The notes beneath the pieces were generated by a model. It saw only the letters and a list, made by a program, of their open reading frames with translations, searched no databases and was not told the origin of the DNA. Below, in pieces: positions 16,797 through 31,471 of a DNA stretch of 32,262 nucleotides; position 1 is the stretch's first letter, and every line of letters starts with the position of its first letter. Where the stretch lies: assembly GCA_015654795.1 (NCBI GenBank), contig JAATGF010000003.1:1-32262 (forward strand), written 5' to 3'. Position numbers and translations under genes: made by a program. This DNA comes from Bacteroidales bacterium. GTDB lineage: Bacteria > Bacteroidota > Bacteroidia > Bacteroidales > Prolixibacteraceae.

Positions 16797-17056
16797 TATT
16801 TAGTGTTTAATAAGCTTCTTAAGTCTCTTTGAAACCGGCATCCGTGTTTAAATCCATTTTATTATACATTCTTAAATATCTTTCCCCTGAATTCTGTCTT
16901 GACCCGTTACTACGAATTTTGTTGTACACCCATCTTGAGAGAGCCGAATTTTATTAAAACTTTTGGCCTTTTTATTTAAAAATTCTTAAACATCACCAAA
17001 AGTGCTATTTAAATATCGAATTGCATTAAATAATTGTAAATTGCTTACGATTTTAT

Positions 17057-17086
17057 TTTGAGATAAAATTTTTATTTGTAGTTTTG
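17057..17086 (+). promoter_or_regulatory. Promoter of the ilv-leu operon
   Basis: TTTG (17057-17060), an 18-bp spacer and TAGTTTTG (17079-17086) match the Bacteroidota promoter consensus exactly. The transcript would start near 17093 and carry about 240 nt of leader before ilvD, containing the leader peptide and terminator. Confidence 0.75.
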
Positions 17087-17182
17087 CCCCGAAGTTTAAA
17101 CAAAATACGTTTGCCGTGATAATTCGGAAGAACAAAATTAAAACTTCGATTGTTATTTTGTTAGATTTGTATTTTAATAATT

Positions 17183-17248
17183 ATGAAGAATATAATTTTA
17201 CATAGCCTCCTCCTCGTGGTCATTATTATTCTCGTCGGTAATGGGTGA
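17183..17248 (+). CDS. Branched-chain leader peptide of the ilv-leu attenuator
   Basis: A 21-codon frame from ATG 17183 to TGA 17246-17248. Thirteen of its 21 codons are Leu, Val or Ile, including the unbroken run LLLVVIIILV at residues 9-18 (17207-17236). It sits between a consensus promoter and an intrinsic terminator ahead of ilvD, as the E. coli ilvL and ilvB leader peptides do. Its stop codon overlaps the first bases of the antiterminator arm (17247-17256), so a ribosome finishing the peptide would mask that arm, while one stalled on the Leu/Val/Ile run would leave it free. The peptide itself probably has no function apart from being translated. No strong Shine-Dalgarno sequence precedes it. 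Confidence 0.88.
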   Translation: MKNIILHSLLLVVIIILVGNG

Positions 17249-17314
17249 GGGAGGTTGTATATTGTATGATGAAACATATAGGAGCCTTTCTCAAAATGAG
17301 AAAGGCTTTTTTTT
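17206..17314 (+). promoter_or_regulatory. Transcription attenuator of the ilv-leu operon
   Basis: Four pairing segments can be drawn. Segment 1 (CCTCCT, 17206-17211, and CATTA, 17221-17225) pairs with segment 2 (GGGAGG, 17249-17254, and TAATG, 17239-17243). Segment 2 (GAGGGAGGTT, 17247-17256) can instead pair in ten positions, three of them G-U, with segment 3 (AGCCTTTCTC, 17283-17292). Segment 3 also pairs perfectly with segment 4 (GAGAAAGGCT, 17298-17307), followed by a T-run to 17314. The 2:3 and 3:4 helices exclude each other, so ribosome position on the leader peptide can decide between read-through and termination. Confidence 0.85.
17283..17314 (+). terminator. Intrinsic terminator of the attenuator (3:4 hairpin)
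   Basis: AGCCTTTCTC and GAGAAAGGCT form a perfect 10-bp stem with an AAAAT loop, followed by a T-run of eight, ending 18 bp before the ATG of ilvD. A factor-independent terminator directly ahead of a gene, with no gene ending before it, indicates conditional termination. Confidence 0.92.
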
Positions 17315-17332
17315 AAATAATATTTTAGTCTG

Positions 17333-19165
17333 ATGCAAAACAATCTGAGAAGCAACACAACTACGATGGGCCGCCGAATGGCAGGCGCACGAAGCTTATG
17401 GAGAGCTAACGGTATGAAGGAGGAGCAGTTTGGCAAACCCTTAATTGCCGTGGTTAACTCTTTTACCCAATTTGTTCCGGGGCATGCTCATCTTCACGAG
17501 ATTGGGCAAATGGTAAAAAAATTAATTGAAGAGCAGGGCTGCTTTGCCGCTGAATTCAATACAATTGCAATCGACGATGGTATCGCAATGGGACACGACG
17601 GTATGTTATATTCGCTCCCATCACGGGACCTGATTGCCGATAGCGTTGAATATATGATTAATGCACACAAGGCTGATGCAATGATCTGTATCTCGAATTG
17701 TGATAAAATTACTCCTGGAATGTTGATGGCTGCCATGCGACTGAATATTCCATGTATCTTTGTTTCAGGCGGTCCAATGGAAGCGGGTGTCGTAGCCAAT
17801 AAAAAATATGATCTGGTCGATGCAATGGTGATGGCTGCCGATCCTTCGGTTAATGAAAGCTTACTTTCCGAAGTCGAGCAAAAAGCCTGTCCCACATGCG
17901 GTTCCTGTTCCGGCATGTTCACCGCTAACTCAATGAACTGTTTAACAGAGGCATTGGGTCTTTCACTTCCCGGAAACGGCACTATCGTAGCAACCCACTT
18001 AAACCGAAAAAAACTATTCGAAAAAGCAGCTAAGCGATTGGTTGAAATCACCCTCGATTACTATCAGAATGGGAACGAGAAAGTACTTCCACGTAGTATC
18101 GCCTCGCGCGCAGCTTTTATGAATGCGATGACGCTTGATATTGCGATGGGTGGATCAACAAATACTGTATTACATTTATTGGCCGTTGCCCATGAAGCGG
18201 AGGTCGATTTTACAATGCAGGATATCGATACCCTTTCGCGAAAAGTTCCCTGCATATGCAAAGTATCGCCTAATTCACATTATCATATTCAGGATGTTAA
18301 CCGCGCCGGTGGCATCATGGGAATTTTGGGTGAACTCGAAAAAGGCGGATTGTTAAATACCTCTGTTTCACGCGTGAGCGAAGATACGCTGGCTGCGGCA
18401 ATTAATAAATGGGACATTCAGAGAACATCTTCTGACAATGAAGCACAAAAACTTTATACCTCTGCTCCAGGAAATATTGGACGTAATCTTACCTTAGGTT
18501 CGCAGGATACCTATTATGCTGAATTGGATGTTGATCGTACTAACGGTTGTATCCGCGATATTGAGCACGCCTATACAAAAGAAGGTGGTTTAGCGATTCT
18601 TTATGGAAATATTGCCCGTGATGGTTGTATCGTAAAAACAGCTGGCGTCGATCCTTCAGTTTTCCGGTTTAGCGGCGTTGCCCGTGTTTTTGAATCACAG
18701 GATGAGGCGTGTGAAGGTATTCTAAAACGTGAAGTAGTCCCCGGCGAGGTTGTGATTATCCGCTACGAAGGTCCGAAAGGTGGACCGGGAATGCAGGAAA
18801 TGCTTTATCCAACGTCTTATCTGAAAGCATCTAAGCTCGATAAAGTTTGTGCCTTGCTCACTGACGGACGTTTTTCAGGCGGAACCTCGGGCCTCTCCAT
18901 CGGACATGTATCACCCGAAGCTGCCGCAGGAGGAGAGATTGCACTTGTGAAAAATGGCGATCGGATTGAAATCGATATTCCTCAACGACGAATTGAGCTG
19001 ATTGTATCAGACGAAGAGTTGAAAACAAGGAAAAAAGCACAGGAGGCACGTGGAAAGATGGCCTATCAACCCGAAAAAAGAACCCGAATAATCAGTAAAG
19101 CATTAAAAGCATATGCCAGCCTTGTTGCCTCGGCAGATAAGGGAGCGGTTAGAATTATTGAATAA
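17333..19165 (+). CDS. ilvD: Dihydroxy-acid dehydratase
   Basis: A 610-residue cytoplasmic iron-sulfur enzyme that dehydrates 2,3-dihydroxy-isovalerate and 2,3-dihydroxy-3-methylvalerate to the 2-oxo acids of valine/leucine and isoleucine. It is very close to E. coli IlvD along its whole length. C123 ([10 protein letters not shown]) and C192 ([10 protein letters not shown]) supply cluster ligands, D82 in IDDGIAMGH is the metal site, and [20 protein letters not shown] is near the C-terminus. The start ATG 17333 gives the family N-terminus. It is the first structural gene after the attenuator; ilvB follows by 17 bp. Confidence 0.97.
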
Positions 19166-19182: not shown

Positions 19183-20925
19183 ATGACATCTATAACTAAC
19201 GATAATATACTTGATCAGGAGGCAATCGAAATAACTGGTTCCGAAGCGGTTATCCGATCTTTAATTGCCGAAGGTGTTGATACGATCTTTGGATATCCCG
19301 GCGGTGCAATCATGCCGGTTTACGACGCACTATACGATTTTCGCCATATTCTCAAACATGTGCTTACCCGCCACGAACAGGGCGCAGTTCATGCAGCTCA
19401 GGGATATGCAAGGGTTTCGGGTAAAGTAGGCGTTTGCGTTGCAACCTCCGGACCTGGTGCTACAAATCTGATTACAGGTATAGCCGACGCATTAATTGAT
19501 TCGACACCGCTTATCTGTATTACCGGGCAGGTTGTTTCCGGATTATTGGGAACGGATGCATTCCAGGAATCAGATGTAATTGGCATAACGATGCCCGTAA
19601 CCAAGTGGAATTATCAGATTACCTGCGCCGAAGAGATTCCGGAAGCAATTGCGCGAGCTTTTTATATTGCGTTAAGTGGCCGTCCGGGACCTGTGGTTTT
19701 AGATATTACAAAGGATGCGCAATTTTCAAAATTGAAATATTCCTATGCGAAATGCAGTAAAATTCGTTCTTATGTTCCCGAATACCCTGCTGATAAATTA
19801 CTGATAAAGAAAGCTGCTGAGTTAATCAATAATGCGAAGAAACCGTTTTTACTTTATGGTCAGGGTGTTATCCTGTCAGGTGGAGAAAAGGAACTGATCC
19901 ACTTTATAGAGAAAACAGGAATTCCGGCAGCCGGAACCTTGCTCGGTTTATCAGCAATCCCAACCGACCATCCTTTGAACATGGGAATGCTCGGAATGCA
20001 TGGCAATTATGGACCAAATATCAAAACCAACGAATGTGATGTCCTGATTGCTGTCGGAATGCGTTTTGATGATCGGGTTACGGGTAGCATATCGACCTAT
20101 GCGAAGCAGGCCAAAATTATTCATGTTGAAATTGATCCTGCGGAAGTTGATAAAAATGTCAAAACTGACGTAGCTTTGATTGGAGATGCCAGGCATACAT
20201 TAAGATTGCTTTCGCGATTGATGGAAGATAAACAACATCCGGAATGGGTCGCCGAATTCCAGGAAGCCGGGGATATTGAAAATAAAAAAGTTATAAATGG
20301 CGATCTTTTCCCTGAAAAACCAGGTCTGACAATGGCAGAGGTAGTTCGGATGGTTTCGGATCTTACAGATAATAAAGCTATTGTAATTACTGATGTTGGA
20401 CAAAACCAGATGGCTGCTGCCCGCTATTCAAAATTTATCGATTCGCGTAGTTGGGTTACTTCCGGTGGATTAGGAACAATGGGATTTGGCTTACCCGCAG
20501 CAATGGGTGCCAAATTCGGGTCTCCTGATCGCGAAGTCGTTGTCTTTACAGGTGATGGCGGAATGCAAATGACGATTCAGGAGTTGGGTACGATTGCTCA
20601 GGAAAAGGTAGCCGTTAAAATTGTGATTCTGAATAACCATTTCCTTGGAATGGTGAGGCAGTGGCAGGAGCTTTTCTTCGAAAAACGGTACTCATTCACA
20701 GAAATTCTGAGTCCTGATTTTGTGAAAGTTGCTGATGCATACGGCATTCCAGGCAGCTCAGTATACAGCCGACATGAGCTGAAAAGTGCCATGCAGAAAA
20801 TGCTTGACAACGATGGCCCCTATCTGCTGGAAGTGATGATAGAAAAAGAGGACAATATTTTCCCGATGGTTCCGGCAGGAAAATCGGTTTCGCAAATCAT
20901 TCTTAGTGCAGACGAACTGAAATAA
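19183..20925 (+). CDS. ilvB: Acetolactate synthase, large (catalytic) subunit
   Basis: A 580-residue thiamine-diphosphate enzyme that joins two pyruvates to 2-acetolactate, or pyruvate and 2-oxobutanoate to 2-aceto-2-hydroxybutyrate. Catalytic E65 is in [15 protein letters not shown]. The FAD/regulatory central domain covers about 200-350, and the ThDP/Mg motif begins with GDGG at 457-460 and runs to the NNHFLGM segment. Length and motifs are normal. The ilvN gene for the regulatory subunit starts 34 bp downstream. Confidence 0.97.
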
Positions 20926-20959: not shown

Positions 20960-21526
20960 ATGAAGCAAGAATACATCATAACAGCTTACAGCGAAAACCA
21001 CATTGGTTTGCTGAACCGGATCACTATCATCTTCACGCGACGCAAAGTAAATATCGAGAGCCTCACGGTCTCGGAGTCTGCATTGCAAGGAATCAGTAAA
21101 TTCACGATTGTTGTAAACGAAGAGAAAGAGAAGGTTGTAAACATAGTCAAACAGATTGACAAGCAGATAGAGGTGCTGAAAGCTTTCTATTACACCAACG
21201 AGGAGATGATTTTTCAGGAAATCGCCCTTTATAAGGTTCCGACTACAGCATTGATGGAAAGCGATCAAATCGAAAAACTGATCAGGAAGCATAACGCCCG
21301 GATCCTGGAAATCACACACGAATACACGGTGATCGAAAAAACTGGTCATAAAGAGGAAACGCAGGAACTTTTCGAAGGATTGAACACTTTCGGCGTTTTG
21401 CAGTTTATTCGATCCGGAAGAGTGGCAATTACACGTTCACCTATCGAGCGATTATCCGAATTTCTGAATGAACGCGATGCGCTTTTCGAAAAATTGGAAG
21501 CGAAGAAAAAAGCTATAAACAACTAA
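20960..21526 (+). CDS. ilvN: Acetolactate synthase, small (regulatory) subunit
   Basis: A 188-residue ACT-domain protein that binds IlvB and makes it sensitive to valine. Residues about 3-75 are the ACT domain (ITAYSENHIGLLNRITIIFTRR, with IESLTVS), and residues about 85-170 are the ALS_ss_C-like domain (IRSGRVAITR near 155). It follows ilvB by 34 bp. A 277-bp gap then separates it from leuA. Confidence 0.94.
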   Translation: MKQEYIITAYSENHIGLLNRITIIFTRRKVNIESLTVSESALQGISKFTIVVNEEKEKVVNIVKQIDKQIEVLKAFYYTNEEMIFQEIALYKVPTTALMESDQIEKLIRKHNARILEITHEYTVIEKTGHKEETQELFEGLNTFGVLQFIRSGRVAITRSPIERLSEFLNERDALFEKLEAKKKAINN

Positions 21527-21803: not shown

Positions 21804-23321
21804 ATGGATAATCGTGTATATATTTTCGACACAACACTTCGCGATGGCGAGCAGGTTCCTGGTTGCCAGTTAAATACAATAGAAAAGGTAGAAGTTGCAA
21901 AAGTTCTTGAACAACTGGGTGTTGATATCATCGAAGCAGGATTTCCCATCTCAAGTCCCGGCGACTTTAAGTCAGTTGTCGAAATCTCGAAAGCGGTTAC
22001 CTGGCCAACCATTTGCGCGCTTACCCGTGCAGTTGAAAAGGATATTGATGTGGCGGCTGAATCGCTGAAATATGCAAAGCGTGGCCGTATTCATACAGGA
22101 ATAGGAACTTCCCCCTATCATATTCAGTATAAGCTAAATTCAAATCCCGATGAGATACTTGCAAGAGCAGTTGCAGCGGTAAAATATGCTAAAAAATATG
22201 TTGAAGATGTTGAGTTCTATGCCGAAGATGCAGGTCGTTCCGATAATGTTTACCTTGCCCGGGTTATCGAAGCGGTCATCAAGGCAGGAGCCACTGTTGT
22301 AAATATACCTGATACAACAGGTTATTGTTTACCTAATGAATTTGGAGAAAAGATCAGGTTTCTGATGGAAAATGTCTCAAACATCGACAAGGCAATCATT
22401 TCGACGCATTGTCACAATGACTTAGGAATGGCAACGGCCAACTCCATCGCGGGTGTGATGAATGGAGCCCGGCAAGTGGAAGTAACGATTAACGGAATTG
22501 GCGAAAGGGCCGGAAATACGGCTCTCGAAGAGGTGGTTATGATCCTGCGTTCACACAAAGATCTTAATCTTTACACAAATATCAATACGAAAAATATTTA
22601 CAAGACCAGCCGCCTCATTTCGAGTTTGATGAATATGCCCGTTCAGCCTAATAAAGCAATTGTTGGCCGGAATGCTTTTTCCCACTCAAGCGGTATTCAT
22701 CAGGATGGCGTGCTGAAAAATCGTGAAAACTATGAAATTATTGATCCGGTTGAAGTTGGTATCAGCGAATCTTCCATCGTTCTGACTGCCCGCAGCGGAC
22801 GTGCAGCGCTGAAACATCGGCTTGATTTATTGGGAGTCTCATTGGACAAAGAAAAGCTCGACAAAGTTTACGAGGAGTTTCTACTGATGGCTGATAAGAA
22901 AAAAGATATCAAAGAAGACGATTTATTAGTGCTGGTAGGCGAGCAGGTAAAAAGCCAACACCGCATTAAACTTGATTTCTTACAAGTGGTTACGGGGAAA
23001 AATCTTGTTCCGATGGCGACAATACGATTGGATATTGCGGGCGAAAAATTCTCAGCTACCGAGTCGGGAAATGGCCCGGTTGATGCTGCCATCAAAGCCG
23101 TAAAAAGCATAATACATCGCAAAGTAACACTTCATGAATTTCTGATTCAGGCCATCAACAGAGGAAGTGATGACATTGGGAAGGTTCACATGCAGGTTGA
23201 ATACGATGAGAACATTTATAATGGGTTTGGTGCAAATACCGATATAATCACAGCTTCGGTCGAGGCATTTATTGATGCCATTAATAAAATTGGAAATGCA
23301 GAAATAGCTGCTGCTAAATGA
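21804..23321 (+). CDS. leuA: 2-isopropylmalate synthase
   Basis: A 505-residue enzyme that condenses acetyl-CoA with 3-methyl-2-oxobutanoate, the first step of leucine synthesis. The HMGL-like TIM barrel starts with [14 protein letters not shown] (residues 7-20); the metal-binding [15 protein letters not shown] and [12 protein letters not shown] motifs follow, and [13 protein letters not shown] marks the linker region. The LeuA_dimer allosteric domain occupies about residues 375-500, which implies leucine feedback. The start ATG 21804 is standard. leuC follows by 45 bp. Confidence 0.96.
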
Positions 23322-23366: not shown

Positions 23367-24770
23367 ATGATTTTGGAACCAAAAACACTTTTTGATAAAA
23401 TCTGGGATGCCCATGTGGTGAAACAGGTAAAAGACGGCCCTGATGTATTGTATATTGACAGGCATTTTATTCACGAAGTCACGAGTCCTGTCGCTTTTTT
23501 AGGTTTGGAAAAGCGGGGAATGAAAGTATTCCGTCCTCAAAATACGATTGCAACTCCCGACCATAATGTCCCCACCATCGATCAGCATCTTCCTATTAAA
23601 GAAGAGCTTTCTCGTATTCAGGTTGAAGCACTTAAGGAGAACTGTGCAAAAAACGGCATCGAATTGTATGGCCTCGCTCATCAATATCATGGAATTGTCC
23701 ATATCATCGGGCCCGAGTTGGGAATCACCCAGCCTGGGATGACCATTGTTTGTGGAGATAGTCACACATCTACGCACGGCGCATTCGGAACGATCGCTTT
23801 CGGAATTGGAACAAGCGAGGTTGAGATGGTTTTTGCGAGTCAGTGTATCCTTCAGCCAAAACCTAAGAAGATGCGAATCAGTGTTGAAGGCAAACTACAA
23901 AAGGATGTTACAGCAAAAGATATTGCACTTTATGTTATTTCAAAAATATCAACTTCGGGTGGAACAGGTCACTTTATCGAGTTTGCCGGTTCTGCTATCC
24001 GGAGTCTGACAATGGAAGGTCGTATGACACTGTGTAATATGAGTATCGAATGTGGCGCACGTGGAGGAATGATTGCACCGGATGAGGTTACATTTGAATA
24101 TATCAAAGGACGCGAATTTGCCCCAAAAGGTGAAGAATGGAATGACAAACTGGCGCTTTGGGAACAATTAAAATCTGACGATAACGCTGTTTTTGATACA
24201 GAATATCAATATGATGCTTCAGATATTGAACCAATGATCACTTATGGTACAAATCCTGGAATGGGAATTGGTGTTAACGGGAATATTCCAACCGGTGAAA
24301 ACCTGACAGGTTCGGATCGGATCACTTTCGATAAGTCATTGGAATATATGGGTTTCAAACCCGGAGAGAAAATCAAAGGGAAAAAAGTGGATTATGTCTT
24401 TATCGGAAGCTGCACCAACGGACGTATTGAAGACTTCAGACTCTTCGCCAACTTTGTGAAAGGAAAAAAGAAAGCCAATTCTGTTACCGCATGGATTGTT
24501 CCGGGTTCAAAAAAGGTGGAGCAACAAATCAGGGAAGAAGGTTTGGTCGAGATATTCGAGGCTGCCGGTTTTGCATTGCGTCAGCCGGGCTGTTCAGCTT
24601 GTCTCGCTATGAATGACGACAAAATCCCTGCAGGAAAATATTCAGTCTCAACTTCGAACCGTAACTTCGAAGGTCGCCAGGGACCTGGTGCCCGCACGAT
24701 GCTCGCAAGTCCGTTAATGGCTGCGGCTGCGGCAATTGCAGGAGTTGTTTCCGATCCGAGAGAGTTCTGA
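23367..24770 (+). CDS. leuC: 3-isopropylmalate dehydratase, large subunit
   Basis: A 467-residue aconitase-family subunit that, with LeuD, isomerises 2-isopropylmalate to 3-isopropylmalate. The 4Fe-4S ligands are C349 (FIGSCTNGR), C409 and C412 ([13 protein letters not shown]); the substrate/cluster stretch [13 protein letters not shown] is at 129-141. The length agrees with LeuC. leuD is 36 bp downstream. If the neighbouring synthase makes citramalate, the same LeuCD complex would also isomerise that compound. Confidence 0.97.
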
Positions 24771-24806: not shown

Positions 24807-25394
24807 ATGTCAATAGAAAAATTTCAAAAACTGGTCAGTACTGTTGTTCCGCTTCCCATTGAAAATGTGGATACTGACCAGATCATTCCTGCACGATTCC
24901 TCAAAGCTGTGGAACGAAAGGGATTTGGGGATAATCTTTTCAGGGACTGGCGTTACAAAAAAGATGGCACGCCAAATGCTGACTTTGTATTGAACAATCC
25001 CAAGTATTCGGGACAGATTTTGGTGGCCGGAAAGAATTTCGGCAGTGGCTCCAGCCGCGAACATGCTGCCTGGGCAGTTTATGATGCGGGATTCAGGGTT
25101 GTCGTTTCGAGTTTCTTTGCCGATATTTTCAAGAGCAATGTTTTGAATAACGGGCTGCTACCTGTTCAGGTTCCGGAAGCTTTTCTGGACGAAATATTCA
25201 GGATTGTTGAAACTGATCCGAAAGCTCAATTTGAAGTTGATCTTGAGAATCAAACGATCACAATTCTAAAAGCAGGAATTAGTGTAAATTTCGATATTAA
25301 TCCATACAAAAAGGAGTGTCTGTTAAATGGTTACGATGATATAGACTTTCTGCTAAGCCTGAAAGAGGAGATCGTCGCATTTGAACAGGCTTAA
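24807..25394 (+). CDS. leuD: 3-isopropylmalate dehydratase, small subunit
   Basis: A 195-residue swivel-domain partner of LeuC. The family motifs [14 protein letters not shown] (about 19-32) and [22 protein letters not shown] (about 74-95, holding the substrate-binding SSREHA) are clear. The length fits. It lies between leuC and the citramalate synthase-like gene with 36-bp gaps on both sides. Confidence 0.97.
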
Positions 25395-25430: not shown

Positions 25431-26951
25431 ATGGTTTATATAATGGATACTACCCTGAGAGATGGGGAACAGACCTCGGGAGTCTCCTTTTCCGAACTGG
25501 AAAAGCTGAACATTGCCAAGATTCTTCTGGACGAACTTCGGGTCGATTTTATAGAAGTGGCTTCTGCGCGTGTTTCAGATGGAGAGTTACGGGGAGCCAA
25601 AAAAGTGCTCGATTGGGCAAGTCAGGCTGGCTATCTCGAACAGGTTGAGATTCTTGGTTTCGTCGACGGAAAAACCTCTCTCGAATGGATCGCGCGCGCG
25701 GGCGGGAAGGTGATGAATCTTTTAGCCAAGGGATCGCTCCGGCATGTAACTCAGCAATTAAAGAAAACACCCGAAGAACATCTGGCCAGCATTAAAAGCT
25801 CTCTTCGTTTTGCTGAGAAGTTGGGAATCAGAGTGAATATTTACCTTGAAGATTGGTCGAACGGGATGCGACATTCGCCTGAATATGTCGATTTTATGCT
25901 CGAAGGTTTAAGATTCGAGAAAATAGGACGTATGATGTTGCCCGATACGCTTGGTATATTAAATCCTACCGAAACCTTTGAGTTTTGTTCGCTGATGATC
26001 CAAAAATATCCCGATCTTCGGTTCGATTTTCATGCCCACAATGATTACGATCTTGCGATTGCGAATGTTGATGCCGCTATTCGTGCCGGCATTACTACTG
26101 TTCACACAACCGTGAATGGTTTAGGGGAACGTGCAGGCAATGCTCCGCTCTCTAGTGTGATTGCTTTACTAAATGATCAGCTTAAACTTCCAAACTCAGT
26201 TAATGAGAGAAAGTTGAGTCTGATTAGCCGGATCGTTGAAAACTTTTCCGGAATTCGTATCTCTGGAAACAAACCGATTATCGGAGAAAATGTCTTTACT
26301 CAATGTAGCGGAATTCATGCAGACGGAGATAATAAAGACCATCTCTATTACAATGATTTGCTTCCCGAACGGTTTGGCAGAATACGGAAATATGCATTGG
26401 GCAAAACTTCCGGTAAGGCAAACATTGCCAAAAACCTTGAAGATATTGGCATTCGTCTCGATCCTGATGATCTAAAACGGGTTACGGATAAAATAATCGA
26501 ACTGGCCGACAAGAAAGAATCAGTCACATCCGACGATCTTCCTTACATTCTGTCGGATGTTTTGAAAAGTGAAGCCGTAAACGAGAAAATCAGGTTGCAC
26601 AATTATGCAATCTCTCACGCATTAGGACTCCGGCCTATGGCCACTGTGGCTATTGAAGTCGATGGTGAGCTTCACGAGGCCGCTTCGTCAGGCGATGGCC
26701 AATACGATGCCTTTATGAATTCCCTGCGAAAGATCTATCAGAAACAGAATAAGCAATTCCCAGCGCTGGTCGACTATATTGTCACAATTCCTCCGGGAGG
26801 GAAAACCGATGCCCTGGTTGAAACATTGATTACCTGGAAAATGGGACGCGAATTTAAAACCCGTGGTCTTGATCCTGACCAGACGACTGCTGCCATCAAA
26901 GCAACCATGAAAATGCTTAATATTGTTGAAAACGATAATCAAATGTTCTAG
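25431..26951 (+). CDS. Citramalate synthase-like (LeuA-family) acyltransferase
   Basis: A 506-residue second member of the LeuA/homocitrate/citramalate synthase family. The barrel begins with [20 protein letters not shown] (4-23); FHAHNDYDLAIANV and GERAGNAPL carry the metal and substrate motifs; ENVFTQCSGIHADGD marks the linker; and a LeuA_dimer-like domain ends the protein (GLRPMATVAIEVDG to MKMLNIVEN). It differs clearly from the LeuA four genes upstream and, in length and tone, resembles the CimA group. From memory a gene in this position is common in Bacteroidales leu clusters. With LeuCD and LeuB it would make 2-oxobutanoate from pyruvate and acetyl-CoA for isoleucine. The exact alpha-keto acid used is inference. 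Confidence 0.8.
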   Translation: MVYIMDTTLRDGEQTSGVSFSELEKLNIAKILLDELRVDFIEVASARVSDGELRGAKKVLDWASQAGYLEQVEILGFVDGKTSLEWIARAGGKVMNLLAKGSLRHVTQQLKKTPEEHLASIKSSLRFAEKLGIRVNIYLEDWSNGMRHSPEYVDFMLEGLRFEKIGRMMLPDTLGILNPTETFEFCSLMIQKYPDLRFDFHAHNDYDLAIANVDAAIRAGITTVHTTVNGLGERAGNAPLSSVIALLNDQLKLPNSVNERKLSLISRIVENFSGIRISGNKPIIGENVFTQCSGIHADGDNKDHLYYNDLLPERFGRIRKYALGKTSGKANIAKNLEDIGIRLDPDDLKRVTDKIIELADKKESVTSDDLPYILSDVLKSEAVNEKIRLHNYAISHALGLRPMATVAIEVDGELHEAASSGDGQYDAFMNSLRKIYQKQNKQFPALVDYIVTIPPGGKTDALVETLITWKMGREFKTRGLDPDQTTAAIKATMKMLNIVENDNQMF

Positions 26952-27019: not shown

Positions 27020-28090
27020 ATGAAGCTTAACATAGCAGTGTTGGCCGGAGACGGAATCGGGCCGGAAATTATTGAACAGGCGCTCCGCGTCACCAAAGTA
27101 GTTTGTCAGAAATTTGGACATGAGCTGATTAGCAGAACCGCTTTGGTTGGTGCAGCTGCCATCGACAAGGTAGGTAATCCTTATCCTGACGAGACGCATA
27201 CCCTTTGTATGAATTCTGATGCAGTCCTTTTTGGGGCAATCGGTCACCCTCGTTTCGACAACGACCCATCTGCGAAAGTCCGTCCCGAACAAGGTCTGCT
27301 GGCCATGCGTAAGAAACTCGGGTTATATGCCAATATTCGTCCGGTAGCCATCTTTGAATCACTGCTTGACAAATCACCGTTAAAGAGAGATCGCGTCGAA
27401 GGCGTTGATTTTGTAGCGATCCGTGAACTGACAGGCGGCATTTACTTTGGACAACCGCAAGGCCGTTCTGAGGATGGGAATACCGCTTACGACTCATCGG
27501 TTTATACGCGTGAGGAAATTGAACGTATCCTTGAACTGGCATTCCAGTTTGCCATGAAACGCCGTAAAAAACTTACGGTGGTCGATAAAGCCAATGTACT
27601 GGCTACATCAAGGTTATGGCGTCAGGTTGCCAAAGAGATGGAACCATATTTCCCCGAAGTGGAAGTTGACTATATGTTTGTCGACAATGCCGCGATGCAG
27701 ATTATTCAATGGCCAAAAAAGTTTGATGTGATGGTTACCGAGAATATGTTCGGTGATATCCTCACCGATGAGGCCAGTGTAATTACTGGTTCAATGGGAC
27801 TTTTGCCATCGGCTTCAATCGGAACCCACACCTCAGTTTTTGAACCGATCCACGGATCATACCCGCAAGCCGCTGGTAAAAATATTGCCAATCCATGCGC
27901 AACTATCTTATCCGCTGCGATGATGTTCGAATATGCATTCTCGTTAATGGAAGAGGGAGCTTTGATTCGCAAAGCTGTCGAAGCCGCCATTGTTGCAGGC
28001 GCTGTTACGGAAGATCTATGCGAAGATAAATCAAAAGCACTGAGCACTTCAGCCGTTGGAGACTGGATTGTGGATTATCTTAGCAAATAG
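27020..28090 (+). CDS. leuB: 3-isopropylmalate dehydrogenase
   Basis: A 356-residue NAD-dependent enzyme that oxidatively decarboxylates 3-isopropylmalate to 4-methyl-2-oxopentanoate. The N-terminus [13 protein letters not shown] is typical, followed by ELTGGIYFG, the [15 protein letters not shown] motif, [28 protein letters not shown] with metal-binding aspartates, and [18 protein letters not shown] for NAD. It is the last gene of the run; a hairpin at 28134-28171 closes the block. It would also serve the citramalate route by converting 3-methylmalate to 2-oxobutanoate. Confidence 0.97.
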
Positions 28091-28213: not shown

Positions 28214-28483
28214 TTAGTAAACTCCATCATGAGTTCCAATATCAACAAAAACAGCTCTTTTCGGCTTTTCCTTTGTAAAAAAGAAAACCACTCGAAGATC
28301 ATATTCAATTGAAAAACTCCACAAGTCCTTTAATCTTCCAGACAATTTATGAGTCTTCAACTTTGCCTCAAATGGATCATTTGTGAATAATTCCAGTCGA
28401 ATCCAGAACTCATTCTCTATCTCAGTCGATTTTATCCTTTTTTGAAATACTTTATTGAATGAATCACTAAATGAAACTTCCAT
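28214..28483 (-). CDS. RelE/YafQ-type mRNA interferase toxin
   Basis: An 89-residue basic protein of the RelE/ParE superfamily. It shows the usual order: an N-terminal strand and helix pair, KTHKLSGRLKDLWSFSIEYDLRVVFFF as the core beta-sheet (LWSFSI.YDLRVVFF), and a C-terminal strand ending in DIGTHDGVY, as in YafQ/RelE-type toxins where a terminal His and Tyr matter for catalysis. Its ATG shares one base with the TAA of the antitoxin gene (TAATG, 28481-28485), so the two are translationally coupled. It is predicted to cleave mRNA on the ribosome; ParE-like gyrase action is the less likely alternative. Confidence 0.8.
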   Translation of the reverse strand: MEVSFSDSFNKVFQKRIKSTEIENEFWIRLELFTNDPFEAKLKTHKLSGRLKDLWSFSIEYDLRVVFFFTKEKPKRAVFVDIGTHDGVY

Positions 28484-28698
28484 TAGAGCATATTTTTAAG
28501 GTCCTCAATCTTCGAAGTGAATTTTAATTTCCCGGCTTTTAACTCCTCTTGCGACTGTCTGAAATTATTAGCAATTTCACTTCTCCGCGTATCGGCAATA
28601 TTATGCTCTAACAGCGTCATGATTTCTAATCTTTCCTCAAGAGGCAGGCTATACAAGGTCTCTACAATATGATTGAACTTCAATATTTGAGCTTTCAT
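28483..28698 (-). CDS. Antitoxin of the RelE-type pair
   Basis: A 71-residue, mostly helical protein. The N-terminal half (FNHIVETLYSLPLEERLEIMTLLEHNI) is a conserved helical module seen in Bacteroidota antitoxins beside RelE-like toxins, and the charged C-terminal tail (EELKAGKLKFTSKIEDLKNML) would wrap the toxin. No ribbon-helix-helix or HTH motif is certain. It is the first gene of the pair and overlaps the toxin by one base. The assignment depends on size, order and the neighbouring toxin. Confidence 0.75.
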   Translation of the reverse strand: MKAQILKFNHIVETLYSLPLEERLEIMTLLEHNIADTRRSEIANNFRQSQEELKAGKLKFTSKIEDLKNML

Positions 28699-28897: not shown

Positions 28898-29785
28898 ATG
28901 AAATTACCTGCCGAACAAATACCAGTTTACAGTCTGCATAACTTCAGTTCTCCTGAACGGAAAAGCCAGCAATTCCAGGTTGAAGTCTTCGATGCCAACC
29001 GGCATTTCAGTGTGAAATATCCACACCGGCACGATTTTTTCGAGGTGCTTTATCTGCAAAAGGGTTCGGGATATCATGTGATCGATGACAATAAATACGA
29101 GATTACGCCACCATGTGTGTTTTTCATGTCTCCCGGACAAGCGCACAAACTCGAACTTTCGCACGATATTGAAGGTTATATCTTTATTTTCACCTCCGAT
29201 TTTTACCTGCTTAACCGGAGTAATCAGGATAGTTTGATCGAATTTCCGTTTTTTTACACAATACATCAGGATAATCCGCCATTGTTGCTGAATAATGAGA
29301 GTGATGTTCACTTTTTGGAAACTTTGTTCAGGCGAGGCATTACAGAAATTGACCAACCTGGTGATCATATCCTCGAAATGCTGCGTTCGATACTCGACCT
29401 TATTTTGATCACATGTGCGGCACGTTATCCGGTGAATGAGAATCTGCTTAACAAAGGCAAAGGACAATTCCTTGTAAAACGTTTCTTTCATCTGATTGAA
29501 GAAAACAAACAGAAAAACCTATCGCTGAACGATTATGCCAATATAATTGGCGTTACCGCCAATCATCTGACCCAAACAGTTAAGGTACTGACAGGCAAAA
29601 CTTCCCTGCAAATTATAAAATCGAAGCAATTGCTCGAAATAAAACGATTACTGGTTCATACGAATCTGAGCATCTCCGAAATTGCCAGCCAGCTAAGTTT
29701 CGAAGATCAATCATATTTCTCGAAATTTTTCAAACGCGAGACTGGCTCAACGCCACTTCAGTATCGGGGTGAAACGCTGAAGTAG
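28898..29785 (+). CDS. AraC-family transcriptional regulator
   Basis: A 295-residue protein with an N-terminal cupin (about 15-150; PHRHDFFEVLYLQKGSGYHVI and PPCVFFMSPGQAHKLEL form the ligand barrel) and a C-terminal AraC/XylS double helix-turn-helix (about 190-290). The second HTH reads SISEIASQLSFEDQSYFSKFFKRETG followed by STPLQYR, the AraC signature. It is transcribed away from the toxin-antitoxin pair and toward ilvC, which starts 210 bp downstream. The effector and targets are unknown; AraC members with this layout in Bacteroidota often control sugar or stress genes, so control of ilvC should not be assumed. Confidence 0.92.
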   Translation: MKLPAEQIPVYSLHNFSSPERKSQQFQVEVFDANRHFSVKYPHRHDFFEVLYLQKGSGYHVIDDNKYEITPPCVFFMSPGQAHKLELSHDIEGYIFIFTSDFYLLNRSNQDSLIEFPFFYTIHQDNPPLLLNNESDVHFLETLFRRGITEIDQPGDHILEMLRSILDLILITCAARYPVNENLLNKGKGQFLVKRFFHLIEENKQKNLSLNDYANIIGVTANHLTQTVKVLTGKTSLQIIKSKQLLEIKRLLVHTNLSISEIASQLSFEDQSYFSKFFKRETGSTPLQYRGETLK

Positions 29786-29995
29786 CCTGTAAAATTACCA
29801 ATAGAACATAACTGGTAACTTACTGGTGTTTAGTAAATGTCTTCGTTTATGAAGTTCTAATCGGAACAAGTATCCATGAAAAGTGCCTAAAATAAATGGT
29901 TTTCTACATTTTTATTTGACGAATATTCAGTTGCTTTGTATTATCAAAAATCAATTATCGGCAGAATTAATAAACACTATAAAAAAATCATCAAA

Positions 29996-31471
29996 ATGGG
30001 AAATTATTTCAACACATTGCCGCTTCGTCTTCAGTTGGCCCAATTGGGAACCTGTGAATTTATGGATCGTTCGGAGTTTGCAGACGGCGTAGATAAGCTC
30101 GAAGACAAGAAAATCGTGATCATTGGTTGTGGCGCTCAGGGATTGAATCAGGGACTGAACTTACGCGATTCGGGACTGGACGTTTCCTACACCCTTAGGG
30201 CTGAAGCAATTAAAGAAAAACGTCAATCGTATAAGAATGCTGCTGAAAACGGATTTAAAGTTGGAACTTACGAAGAAATGATTCCGACTGCCGATCTTGT
30301 CATCAACCTCACTCCTGATAAACAACATAGTGGTGTTATTAAAGCAGTAATGCCTTTAATCAAAAAGGGAGCTACCCTTTCGTATTCTCACGGTTTCAAC
30401 ATCGTGGAAGAGGGGATGCAAATCAGGAAAGACATTACCGTAATCATGGTTGCCCCTAAATCACCGGGGTCTGAAGTCCGCGCCGAATACCTGCGCGGGT
30501 TTGGTGTTCCAACCCTTATTGCTGTGCATCCTGAAAATGACCCGAATGGCGACGGTTTCGAGATAGCGAAAGCCTATTGCGCAGGAACCGGCGGACATAA
30601 GGCTGGTGTGCTTAAATCGTCGTTTGTCGCCGAAGTAAAATCGGATCTCATGGGCGAGCAGACCATACTTTGCGGATTGTTGCAAACAGGATCAATCCTG
30701 TCGTTCAATAAAATGATTGAAAAGGGAATTGATGCAGGTTATGCCGCAAAACTGGTGCAGTATGGTATCGAAGTAATCACAGAAGCGTTGAAACATGGCG
30801 GTATCACCAATATGATGGATCGTTTGTCGAATCCCGCAAAGATCAAGGCTTTTGAACTTTCGGAGGAATTGAAAACGATTATGCGTCCCTTGTTCTGGAA
30901 ACATATGGACAACATCATGTCGGGTGAATTTTCGAAAACAATGATGGAAGACTGGGCCAACGATGATAAAGATCTGCTGAAATGGAGAGCTGAAACGGGC
31001 GAAACCGCCTTCGAGAAGACTCCGGCAAGCGATGTGAAAATTACCGAACAGGAATACTTCGACAATGGTACACTGATGGTTGCATTCATAAAATCGGGCG
31101 TTGAGCTTGCTTTCGAAACGATGACTGAAGCCGGCATCAAAGCTGAGTCGGCTTATTATGAATCGTTACATGAAACACCGCTGATTGCCAATACGATTGC
31201 ACGTAAGAAATTGTTCGAAATGAACCGTGTAATTTCCGACACTGCTGAATATGGCTGTTACCTTTTCGATCACGCCTGTAAACCATTATTGGCTGATTTC
31301 ATGGCAAAAATCGATACTAACGTAATCGGCAAAAACTTCAATGCCGGAATTGATGCTCACGTCGATAACAAGAAATTGATCCAGGTTAACGCAGCAATCC
31401 GTTACCACGAAGTTGAGATCATTGGCGAAGAATTGCGCGAAGCTATGGATGCGATGAAAGCGATTATCTAA
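29996..31471 (+). CDS. ilvC: Ketol-acid reductoisomerase, class II (long form)
   Basis: A 491-residue NADPH- and Mg-dependent enzyme that isomerises and reduces 2-acetolactate and 2-aceto-2-hydroxybutyrate. The start is ATG 29996, giving [18 protein letters not shown], which matches the E. coli IlvC N-terminus; an in-frame upstream ATG-less extension to 29936 is not conserved. The Rossmann motif is [12 protein letters not shown], and the length equals E. coli IlvC (491), i.e. the long form with duplicated C-terminal knotted domain. It is separated from the main ilv-leu operon by the toxin-antitoxin pair and the AraC gene. The 210-bp upstream region shows only small hairpins (for example TTACCA/TGGTAA at 29795-29818) and no clear leader peptide or attenuator. 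Confidence 0.97.

What the first reader, a model, noticed from the sequence alone, without database searches (positions are those of the whole stretch)
17057..17332. Complete leader-peptide attenuator in front of a Bacteroidota ilv-leu operon
A consensus promoter, a 21-codon peptide with a ten-residue Leu/Val/Ile run, a protector pairing (1:2), a ten-position antiterminator (2:3) and a perfect 10-bp terminator with a T-run (3:4) are laid out in order ahead of ilvD. The antiterminator uses exactly the terminator's 5' arm, and the peptide stop codon overlaps the antiterminator arm. This is the full logic of ribosome-mediated attenuation. It is classical in Proteobacteria, and I know of few worked-out cases in Bacteroidota, where weak Shine-Dalgarno use makes coupling less studied. 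One decision would govern eight genes.
Basis: partly seen in the sequence, partly recalled or inferred. Interest (0 to 1): 0.85.

Follow-up and report, generated by a model that had tools for sequence, protein, structure and literature searches.

The report
Amino-acid-sensing RNA switch before ilvD
Ahead of a bacterial gene cluster for making leucine, valine and isoleucine lies an RNA switch that very likely reads how fast a ribosome gets through a short run of codons for those same amino acids; the trick is textbook in other bacteria, but here it recurs in many relatives within a group where it has hardly been described.

Summary
Confirmed. Window 17057-17314 carries a promoter, the leader peptide MKNIILHSLLLVVIIILVGNG*, a protector pairing, a ten-pair antiterminator and a terminator with eight T, ahead of eight co-directional ilv/leu genes. 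Not chance: 55 of 57 family ilvD leaders hold the unit, against 1 of 1140 shuffles, 0 of 57 reverse strands and 0 of 25 non-Bacteroidota ilvD loci. Segments 2, 3 and 4 covary: 3:4 pairs form in 100% of cells, 2:3 in 92%, with changes on both sides in 4 and 3 of 10 pairs. In a folding model a ribosome waiting at Leu9 to Leu17 leaves the antiterminator free (P 0.95); at the stop codon it does not (0.00). Beyond the finding: relatives have like devices before leuA with Leu/Ile but almost no Val codons, and before a MocR-like aminotransferase with Ala/Ile/Val codons, so leader codons follow the product. Twelve of 57 carry two units in series at ilvD. The mechanism is classical; its use in this phylum is scarcely documented. 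No expression data were available; coupling and starvation response are inferred.

The parts
17057..17086 (+). Promoter: -33 TTTG (17057-17060), -7 TAGTTTTG (17079-17086); start expected near 17092 (inferred)
   Evidence: Consensus match; a TAnnTTTG lies within 160 nt upstream of the first leader ATG in 55 of 55 family leaders (shuffles 507 of 2750), and with TTG 17-21 nt upstream in 46 of 55 (shuffles 56 of 2750). Alternative -7 boxes at 17106 and 17162.
17183..17248 (+). Leader peptide MKNIILHSLLLVVIIILVGNG*
   Evidence: relatives
17207..17236 (+). Sensing codons: Leu3 Val2 Ile3 Leu Val
   Evidence: codon choice in family leaders differs from ilvD of the same genomes; occupancy model
17204..17227 (+). 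Segment 1 (protector, 5' side), inside the sensing codons
   Evidence: synonymous-codon null p 0.02 / 0.06
17246..17256 (+). Segment 2 (antiterminator 5' arm; overlaps the stop codon)
17283..17293 (+). Segment 3 (shared: antiterminator 3' arm = terminator 5' arm)
17297..17309 (+). Segment 4 (terminator 3' arm)
17307..17314 (+). T run of the terminator; predicted 3' end of the short RNA
17333..19165 (+). ilvD, dihydroxy-acid dehydratase
   Evidence: NF009103 1070.9 bits, cut-off 710
19183..20925 (+). ilvB, acetolactate synthase large subunit
   Evidence: TIGR00118 731.3 bits, cut-off 538.35
20960..21526 (+). ilvN/ilvH, acetolactate synthase small subunit
   Evidence: TIGR00119 108.5 bits, cut-off 56.9
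21804..23321 (+). leuA, 2-isopropylmalate synthase
   Evidence: TIGR00973 686.4 bits, cut-off 598.7
23367..24770 (+). leuC
   Evidence: TIGR00170 667.6 bits, cut-off 560.25
24807..25394 (+). leuD
   Evidence: TIGR00171 208 bits, cut-off 116.25
25431..26951 (+). cimA-like, probable (R)-citramalate synthase
   Evidence: best family NF042433 CimA, 649.3 bits, below its cut-off of 950
27020..28090 (+). leuB
   Evidence: TIGR00169 458.2 bits, cut-off 353.2

Best explanation
A ribosome-mediated transcription attenuator of the trp/ilv/leu type. RNA polymerase makes the leader while a ribosome follows it. With enough charged tRNA the ribosome reaches the UGA stop, covers segment 2, segment 3 pairs with 4, and transcription ends near 17314. 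If charged tRNA-Leu, -Val or -Ile is short, the ribosome waits in the run, covers segment 1 but leaves 2 free; 2 pairs with 3 before 4 is made, no terminator forms, and ilvD to leuB are transcribed. With no ribosome, 1 tends to pair with 2, which favours termination. Shown by sequence: the parts, their mutual exclusivity, conservation and covariation, and the match between leader codons and operon product in relatives. Inferred: coupling of ribosome and polymerase, the response to starvation, and that all eight genes share one transcript.
For: Unit present in 55 of 57 family ilvD leaders against 1 of 1140 shuffles, 0 of 57 reverse strands and 0 of 25 non-Bacteroidota loci. Antiterminator better than shuffles (p<0.05) in 49 of 55 ilvD-proximal units. 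Covariation in both alternative helices at shared columns: 17252/17287/17303 read T/A/T instead of A/T/A in 5 of 55 rows, 17248/17291/17299 read G/C/G instead of A/T/A in 6 of 55. Occupancy model: antiterminator probability 0.95 for A-site codons 8-17, 0.72 at Val18, 0.42 at Gly19, 0.00 from codon 20 to the stop, 0.25 with no ribosome. Leader codons follow the product: ilvD leaders L 19% I 18% V 19% A 3% (67 units); leuA leaders L 27% I 25% V 2% A 0% (18); aminotransferase leaders A 17% I 21% V 14% L 5% (7); at least 3 Val in 59 of 67 ilvD leaders and in 0 of 18 leuA leaders.
Against: No expression, 3'-end or starvation data. The protector is only moderately supported (21 of 67 units below 0.05 against an ilvD-codon null, 18 of 67 against a leader-codon null; some, such as L113, L114 and L132, pair worse than the nulls). 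In the finished RNA the terminator is more stable than the antiterminator in every state modelled, so the switch must be kinetic, as is usual for attenuators (recalled). The antiterminator test fails (p 0.05 or more) in 6 of 55 ilvD-proximal family units: L117, L125 and all four of one related group, L086, L091, L092, L093. Upstream units of tandem leaders reach p<0.05 in only 3 of 12; units outside the family in 21 of 38. For 2:3 the number of pairs changed on both sides (3) is not above shuffles (127 of 500 reach it) and is equalled by two slid controls.
Confidence: 0.92

Rival explanations
1. The hairpin is a plain, unregulated terminator or 5' UTR stabiliser, and the ORF is a small hydrophobic membrane protein or an accident.
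For: LLLVVIIILV could be a membrane stretch; no translation data.
Against: Peptide and terminator stay together in 55 of 57 relatives; stop-to-terminator distance is 24-39 nt, median 33, in 55 ilvD-proximal units; segment 2 covaries with the terminator arm; leader composition shifts to Leu/Ile at leuA and to Ala/Ile/Val at an aminotransferase; codon choice is unusual (Leu CTA 22% against 5% in ilvD, TTA/TTG 3% against 38%, Val GTC 57% against 13%).
Confidence: 0.03
2. A T-box, riboswitch or RNA-binding protein senses the amino acid, and the ORF is incidental.
For: Terminator/antiterminator logic is shared with those classes; the arm AGCC(T/A)TTCTC looks more constant than pairing alone demands.
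Against: No Rfam family at gathering score in the window; the best sub-threshold hits in 17000-17400 are far below cut-off (PyrR 23.6 of 54 bits, Phe_leader 19.7 of 55). Little room for an aptamer in most relatives: the nearest TAnnTTTG lies within 50 nt of the leader ATG in 37 of 55, and segment 2 begins at or near the stop codon. A ligand-binding RNA would not need peptide composition to follow the operon product.
Confidence: 0.03
3. Regulation is by translation or Rho (reinitiation, or exposure of the leader when translation stops) rather than by the 2:3/3:4 switch.
For: Leader ORFs close to genes may act through reinitiation (PMC4833913, passages).
Against: The leader's stop codon ends 84 nt before ilvD, far from the 11-14 bp peak that paper gives for Bacteroidetes; the same paper says attenuation needs at least 40 bp. 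A strong intrinsic terminator is present and covaries.
Confidence: 0.02

Closest known systems
trp/his/leu/ilvGMEDA leader attenuators of Enterobacteria (recalled)
   Same: Leader peptide rich in the regulated amino acid, segments 1-4, exclusive 2:3 and 3:4 pairing, intrinsic terminator with a U run.
   Different: No Rfam leader family matched at its cut-off. The leader start lacks a Shine-Dalgarno motif: SD-like tetramer in 4 of 67 family leader starts, mean A+T 0.77 over 20 nt. In the window the antiterminator arm overlaps the stop codon.
ilvBNC attenuator of Corynebacterium (PMC10272879, PMC11857589; search listing and start of abstracts only)
   Same: A uORF or hairpin attenuator controls an ilv operon.
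   Different: Different phylum and gene order; sequences were not compared here.
Leader-peptide attenuation reported in Flavobacterium psychrophilum (PMC9723704; passages read)
   Same: Same phylum; leader peptides ahead of amino-acid operons.
   Different: The passages name no operon or segments; details are in supplements that I could not open. Outside the order the IlvD differs: of 149 class genomes searched 39 matched the window's IlvD, 34 of them only at about 30-38% identity.
Salmonella mgtCBR tandem attenuators (PMC3641672; search listing and start of abstract only)
   Same: Two short ORFs in one leader, as in the tandem ilvD and aminotransferase leaders of relatives.
   Different: By the listing it is the leader of a virulence and Mg2+ transport operon; here both ilvD peptides are of BCAA type and each is followed by its own terminator.

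Membership tests
Ribosome-mediated transcription attenuator (amino-acid leader type) | Short translated ORF enriched in codons of the operon's end product | tested here: met
   10-residue L/V/I run; composition follows the product at ilvD and leuA, and is Ala-rich at an aminotransferase. That it is translated was not tested.
Ribosome-mediated transcription attenuator (amino-acid leader type) | Intrinsic terminator between leader ORF and first gene | tested here: met
   17281-17314; 100% of cells paired in 54 distinct rows (rows were chosen for having a terminator)
Ribosome-mediated transcription attenuator (amino-acid leader type) | Antiterminator that uses the terminator's 5' arm and covaries with it | tested here: met
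   92% of cells, 12 cells changed on both sides against 2.5 in shuffles; shuffle test passed in 49 of 55
Ribosome-mediated transcription attenuator (amino-acid leader type) | Protector pairing 1:2 that forms without translation | tested here: inconclusive
   Window p 0.02 / 0.06; 21 and 18 of 67 units below 0.05 under two nulls
Ribosome-mediated transcription attenuator (amino-acid leader type) | Geometry: stall in the run frees segment 2, stop codon covers it | tested here: met
   Occupancy model of the window leader, (a footprint edge 14 nt beyond the first A-site base was assumed)
Ribosome-mediated transcription attenuator (amino-acid leader type) | Readthrough rises when the cognate tRNA is uncharged | not testable with these tools
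   No expression data held
Rfam amino-acid leader families | Score above the family's gathering cut-off | tested here: not met
   0 matches in the window; Phe_leader 19.7 of 55 bits: works like them, not a member of those sequence families
T-box | Match to the T-box covariance model | tested here: not met
   No family at gathering score in the window, and no T-box among the 6 hits up to E 5 in 17000-17400

The most novel reading that the evidence does not exclude
Prolixibacteraceae, and in part Bacteroidales (GTDB sense) at large, run a regulon of ribosome-read attenuators with like terminator arms, AGCC(T/A)TTCTC, whose codon content is tuned operon by operon: Leu+Val+Ile at ilvD; Leu+Ile almost without Val at leuA-leuCD-cimA-leuB, whose products would be exactly Leu and, through citramalate, Ile; Ala with Ile and Val but hardly Leu at a MocR-like aminotransferase. 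In 12 of 57 genomes two complete units stand in series at ilvD with different arms (CCATTCTC, then CCTTTCTC). This would mean that a phylum that mostly starts translation without Shine-Dalgarno pairing nevertheless couples ribosome and polymerase tightly.
Probability: 0.7. Interest if true: 0.75.

Novelty: new member of a known kind. Interest (0 to 1): 0.6.

Why it matters
It supplies a sequence-level case, repeated in dozens of genomes, that Bacteroidota use ribosome-read attenuation. That needs a ribosome close behind RNA polymerase, so coupling in a phylum with little Shine-Dalgarno use becomes directly testable with an existing leader. Leader codons may also predict function: Ala codons before a MocR-like aminotransferase point to alanine-linked transamination, and Leu/Ile-only codons before leuA-cimA point to citramalate-derived isoleucine. 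Units also precede ilvD in loci titled Bacteroides and Phocaeicola, genera with laboratory strains (recalled).

Tried and rejected
Rfam at gathering and relaxed thresholds gave no member family. A search for poly-His codon runs in 8 genomes hit in 8 of 8, but the reversed control also hit in 6 of 8; not followed up, so attenuators for other amino acids remain unexamined. The idea that tandem units are insulated from each other by different arms was tested by duplex energies in the 12 family tandem loci: 2B prefers 3B over 3A in 11 of 12 (not L098) and 2A prefers 3A over 3B in 11 of 12 (not L094), but arm 3A pairs better with 2B than with its own 2A in 10 of 12, so insulation is not claimed. 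Upstream tandem units are weakly supported on their own (3 of 12). In L034, L050 and L057 (titled Marinifilum, Labilibaculum, Marinifilaceae) the antiterminator test fails for 4 of 6 tandem units. I looked for a second attenuator in the window's 277-nt gap before leuA and before ilvC and found none. Of 32 places away from ilvD fetched precede leuA, 5 the aminotransferase, 1 ilvB, and 9 none of these (L219 and L233 had no gene within reach; L242 and L245 look like ordinary terminators after a GroEL-like tail, my reading). A threonine deaminase search (TIGR01127, 12 genomes) found none over the curated cut-off; 7 of 12 have a weaker full-length match, and the window's own genome (69% complete), two genus relatives, G011 and G027 do not, so the route to isoleucine is not settled.

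Limits of the sets: of 60 family genomes 58 had ilvD; 57 leaders were examined (G020 was not fetched). Of the 80 loci, a capped list, 38 carry a unit; some repeat family genomes (L003, L005 and L007 carry leaders like those of the family set). The 25 non-Bacteroidota controls were picked by title; three had under 300 nt of upstream sequence. The alignment A1 leaves out the two family loci without a unit. The leuA and aminotransferase leaders were found through the terminator pattern, so their terminator likeness is by selection; their peptides were not chosen for composition, except that where two ORFs ended near the arm (L225, L148) I dropped the one without the hydrophobic run, and for L215 and L145 I used an inner ATG. 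The strict pattern finds nothing in 11 of 60 family genomes, some of which do have an ilvD unit.

Full report
What is there. The leader lies between 17057 and 17314 on the + strand. The promoter fits the Bacteroidota consensus (TTTG at 17057, TAGTTTTG at 17079; the -7 consensus TAnnTTTG is also given in a passage of PMC9723704), with two further -7 boxes at 17106 and 17162, so the start site is not fixed by sequence. The ORF 17183-17248 encodes MKNIILHSLLLVVIIILVGNG. Its stop codon overlaps segment 2 (17246-17256), which can pair with segment 3 (17283-17293); segment 3 can instead pair with segment 4 (17297-17309), followed by T 17307-17314. Energies: 1:2 -16.5, 2:3 -16.6, 3:4 -17.8 kcal/mol. 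The stretch 17090-17332 folds better than shuffles (z -3.44, 1 of 200 as good). Downstream follow ilvD, ilvB, ilvN, leuA, leuC, leuD, a cimA-like gene and leuB; gaps are 17-68 nt except 277 nt before leuA.

Where it comes from. The genome's family is very probably Prolixibacteraceae: two family contigs have the same length, and carry the same leader peptide, as public contigs so titled (G037:C22, 96126 bases = DBPT01000004.1; G016:C11, 8491 bases = SKHV01000237.1). The genome itself is 69% complete. NCBI places the family in Marinilabiliales; 'order' and 'Bacteroidales' here follow the grouping of the genome tool.

Chance. In the 450 nt before ilvD, an ATG ORF with at least 6 of 10 Ile/Leu/Val followed by a terminator occurs in 55 of 57 family leaders (window included), in 1 of 1140 dinucleotide shuffles, on 0 of 57 reverse strands, and in 0 of 25 non-Bacteroidota ilvD loci. 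Of the two family loci without a unit, L134 keeps a peptide with only a weak terminator and L136's genome has a leader before ilvB (L226).

Covariation. 3:4: 100% of cells paired, 4 of 10 pairs with changes on both sides, 18 such cells against 3.4 in shuffles. 2:3: 92% paired, 3 of 10 pairs, 12 such cells against 2.5; the number of pairs itself is not above shuffles (127 of 500 reach it) and two slid controls also give 3. Slid controls are lower on percentage paired and covariation score in both helices. Two columns change in all three segments at once (17252/17287/17303 in 5 rows, 17248/17291/17299 in 6), which a plain terminator would not require. Cells count related sequences, so these are fewer events than rows. 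RNAalifold on the same alignment returns the terminator alone, as expected when two structures compete.

Mechanism. With the ribosome's leading edge taken as 14 nt beyond the first base of the A-site codon (an assumption), the antiterminator forms with probability 0.95 when codons 8 to 17 are in the A site, 0.72 at Val18, 0.42 at Gly19 and 0.00 from Asn20 to the stop; with no ribosome 0.25. The sensing run thus sits where a stall works, and ends where it stops working. After segment 4 is made the terminator wins in every state modelled (0.97 or more), so the decision must be kinetic. The leader starts mostly lack Shine-Dalgarno motifs (SD-like tetramer in 4 of 67 units), as expected in this phylum.

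Codons. In the leader runs Leu is CTT, CTC or CTA in 190 of 203 cases and TTA/TTG in 6, against 641 and 696 of 1843 in ilvD (whole or part) of the same 57 genomes; Val is GTC in 132 of 230 against 213 of 1626; Ile is ATA in 2 of 174 against 198 of 1747. Either pairing constraints or the choice of starvation-sensitive tRNA isoacceptors (an idea I recall from Elf and others 2003, not looked up) could cause this; I did not separate them.

A regulon. The pattern of the terminator arm hits only the ilvD leader in the window's genome. In 60 family genomes the reversed control gives 0 hits, and the pattern hits in 49. Of 32 fetched places away from ilvD, 17 precede leuA, 5 a MocR-like aminotransferase, 1 ilvB and 9 none of these; with L140, L145 and L148 this makes 18 leuA and 7 aminotransferase leaders. 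The leuA leaders hold Leu and Ile but 6 Val in 386 residues; ilvD leaders hold 254 Val in 1345. The leuA antiterminator beats shuffles in 17 of 18. In the 6 leuA loci opened further (of 18), leuA, leuC, leuD, cimA and leuB follow in that order in all 6, and in G024 the leuA leader lies on the same strand just behind ilvD-ilvB-ilvN. That operon would make leucine and, through citramalate, isoleucine, not valine: the leader reads what the operon makes (inference; the cimA assignment rests on a below-cut-off match). The aminotransferase leaders hold Ala 23, Ile 28, Val 19 and Leu 7 in 136 residues; 5 of 7 loci have a second Ala/Val-rich ORF before the gene. NCBIfam places that protein among MocR-like and general aminotransferases, none of the 25 shown over cut-off.

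Tandem units. Twelve of 57 family ilvD loci, and L034, L050 and L057, carry two units in series. The upstream ones are weaker than the downstream ones (3 of 12 at p<0.05 against 49 of 55 ilvD-proximal units). Series attenuators would multiply termination and give a lower basal level and a steeper response; this is inference.

Range. Units also precede ilvD in loci titled Bacteroides graminisolvens (L037), Phocaeicola (L047, L055) and Alistipes (L066, L076), and were not found in L067, L068 and L081 (Prevotella, Prevotellaceae), among others. Over the 80 loci, 38 have a unit and 21 of the 38 pass the antiterminator test. Elsewhere in the class the IlvD found is mostly a distant one; of 25 such loci examined (L160-L184), five had an ILV-rich ORF followed by a terminator (L164, L167, L171, L176 and, with a 40-residue ORF, L183).

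Literature. Ten searches of the held library ran (several lists were capped far below the number of papers found) and their listings showed no worked-out leader-peptide attenuator of Bacteroidota. PMC9723704 (passages) reports strong clues in F. psychrophilum; PMC7366714 (passages) mentions short ORFs reminiscent of leader peptides in B. thetaiotaomicron; PMC2965389 (passages) said in 2010 that, before its own Firmicutes case, none had been shown outside Proteobacteria and Actinobacteria; PMC12596196 has no occurrence of the six words searched. Lopatovskaya 2010 (Mol Biol 44:128) was seen only as a reference and may include Bacteroidetes predictions; most subscription journals are not held.

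Verdict. Real, conserved and very probably a ribosome-read attenuator; ordinary in mechanism, little documented in its phylum, and part of a larger set in which the codons follow the product.

Noticed in passing
L140, L215, L216, L218, L221-L225, L227-L229, L232, L235-L239: Separate attenuators before leuA in 18 relatives, with Leu/Ile-rich leaders almost free of Val; the cluster continues leuC leuD cimA leuB in the 6 opened.
   Followed up: partly
L145, L148, L217, L220, L231, L234, L240: Ala/Ile/Val-rich leader peptides with terminators before a MocR-like PLP aminotransferase, 5 of 7 with a second Ala/Val-rich ORF. In L217 and L231 the second unit shows GTCACATAG facing GATGTGAC, with variants in others (by eye). 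Suggests an alanine-linked transaminase under amino-acid control.
   Followed up: partly
L094-L101, L104, L106, L110, L129; also L034, L050, L057: Two leader-peptide units in series before ilvD; in the 12 family loci the upstream arm is CCATTCT(C) and the downstream arm CCTTTCTC.
   Followed up: partly
17283-17292 and homologous columns of alignment A1: The terminator 5' arm AGCC(T/A)TTC(T/C)C is nearly constant across the family, more than pairing alone seems to need; the reason is not known.
   Followed up: no
window 28214-28698, - strand: YafQ-like toxin gene (Pfam PF15738, 32.1 bits, cut-off 30) with a small upstream ORF that may be its antitoxin, between leuB and an AraC-type regulator.
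   Followed up: no
window 28898-31471, + strand: AraC-type regulator, then ilvC standing apart from the ilvD cluster, with no TAnnTTTG in 29786-29936 and no leader peptide seen there.
   Followed up: partly
L164, L167, L171, L176, L183: ILV-rich ORFs followed by terminators before a distant ilvD (34-37% identical) elsewhere in the class.
   Followed up: no
G015:C36:11192-13007 (upstream part in L131): In this genus relative ilvD matches in two pieces in different frames; the leader is intact. Sequencing error or real break was not examined.
   Followed up: no
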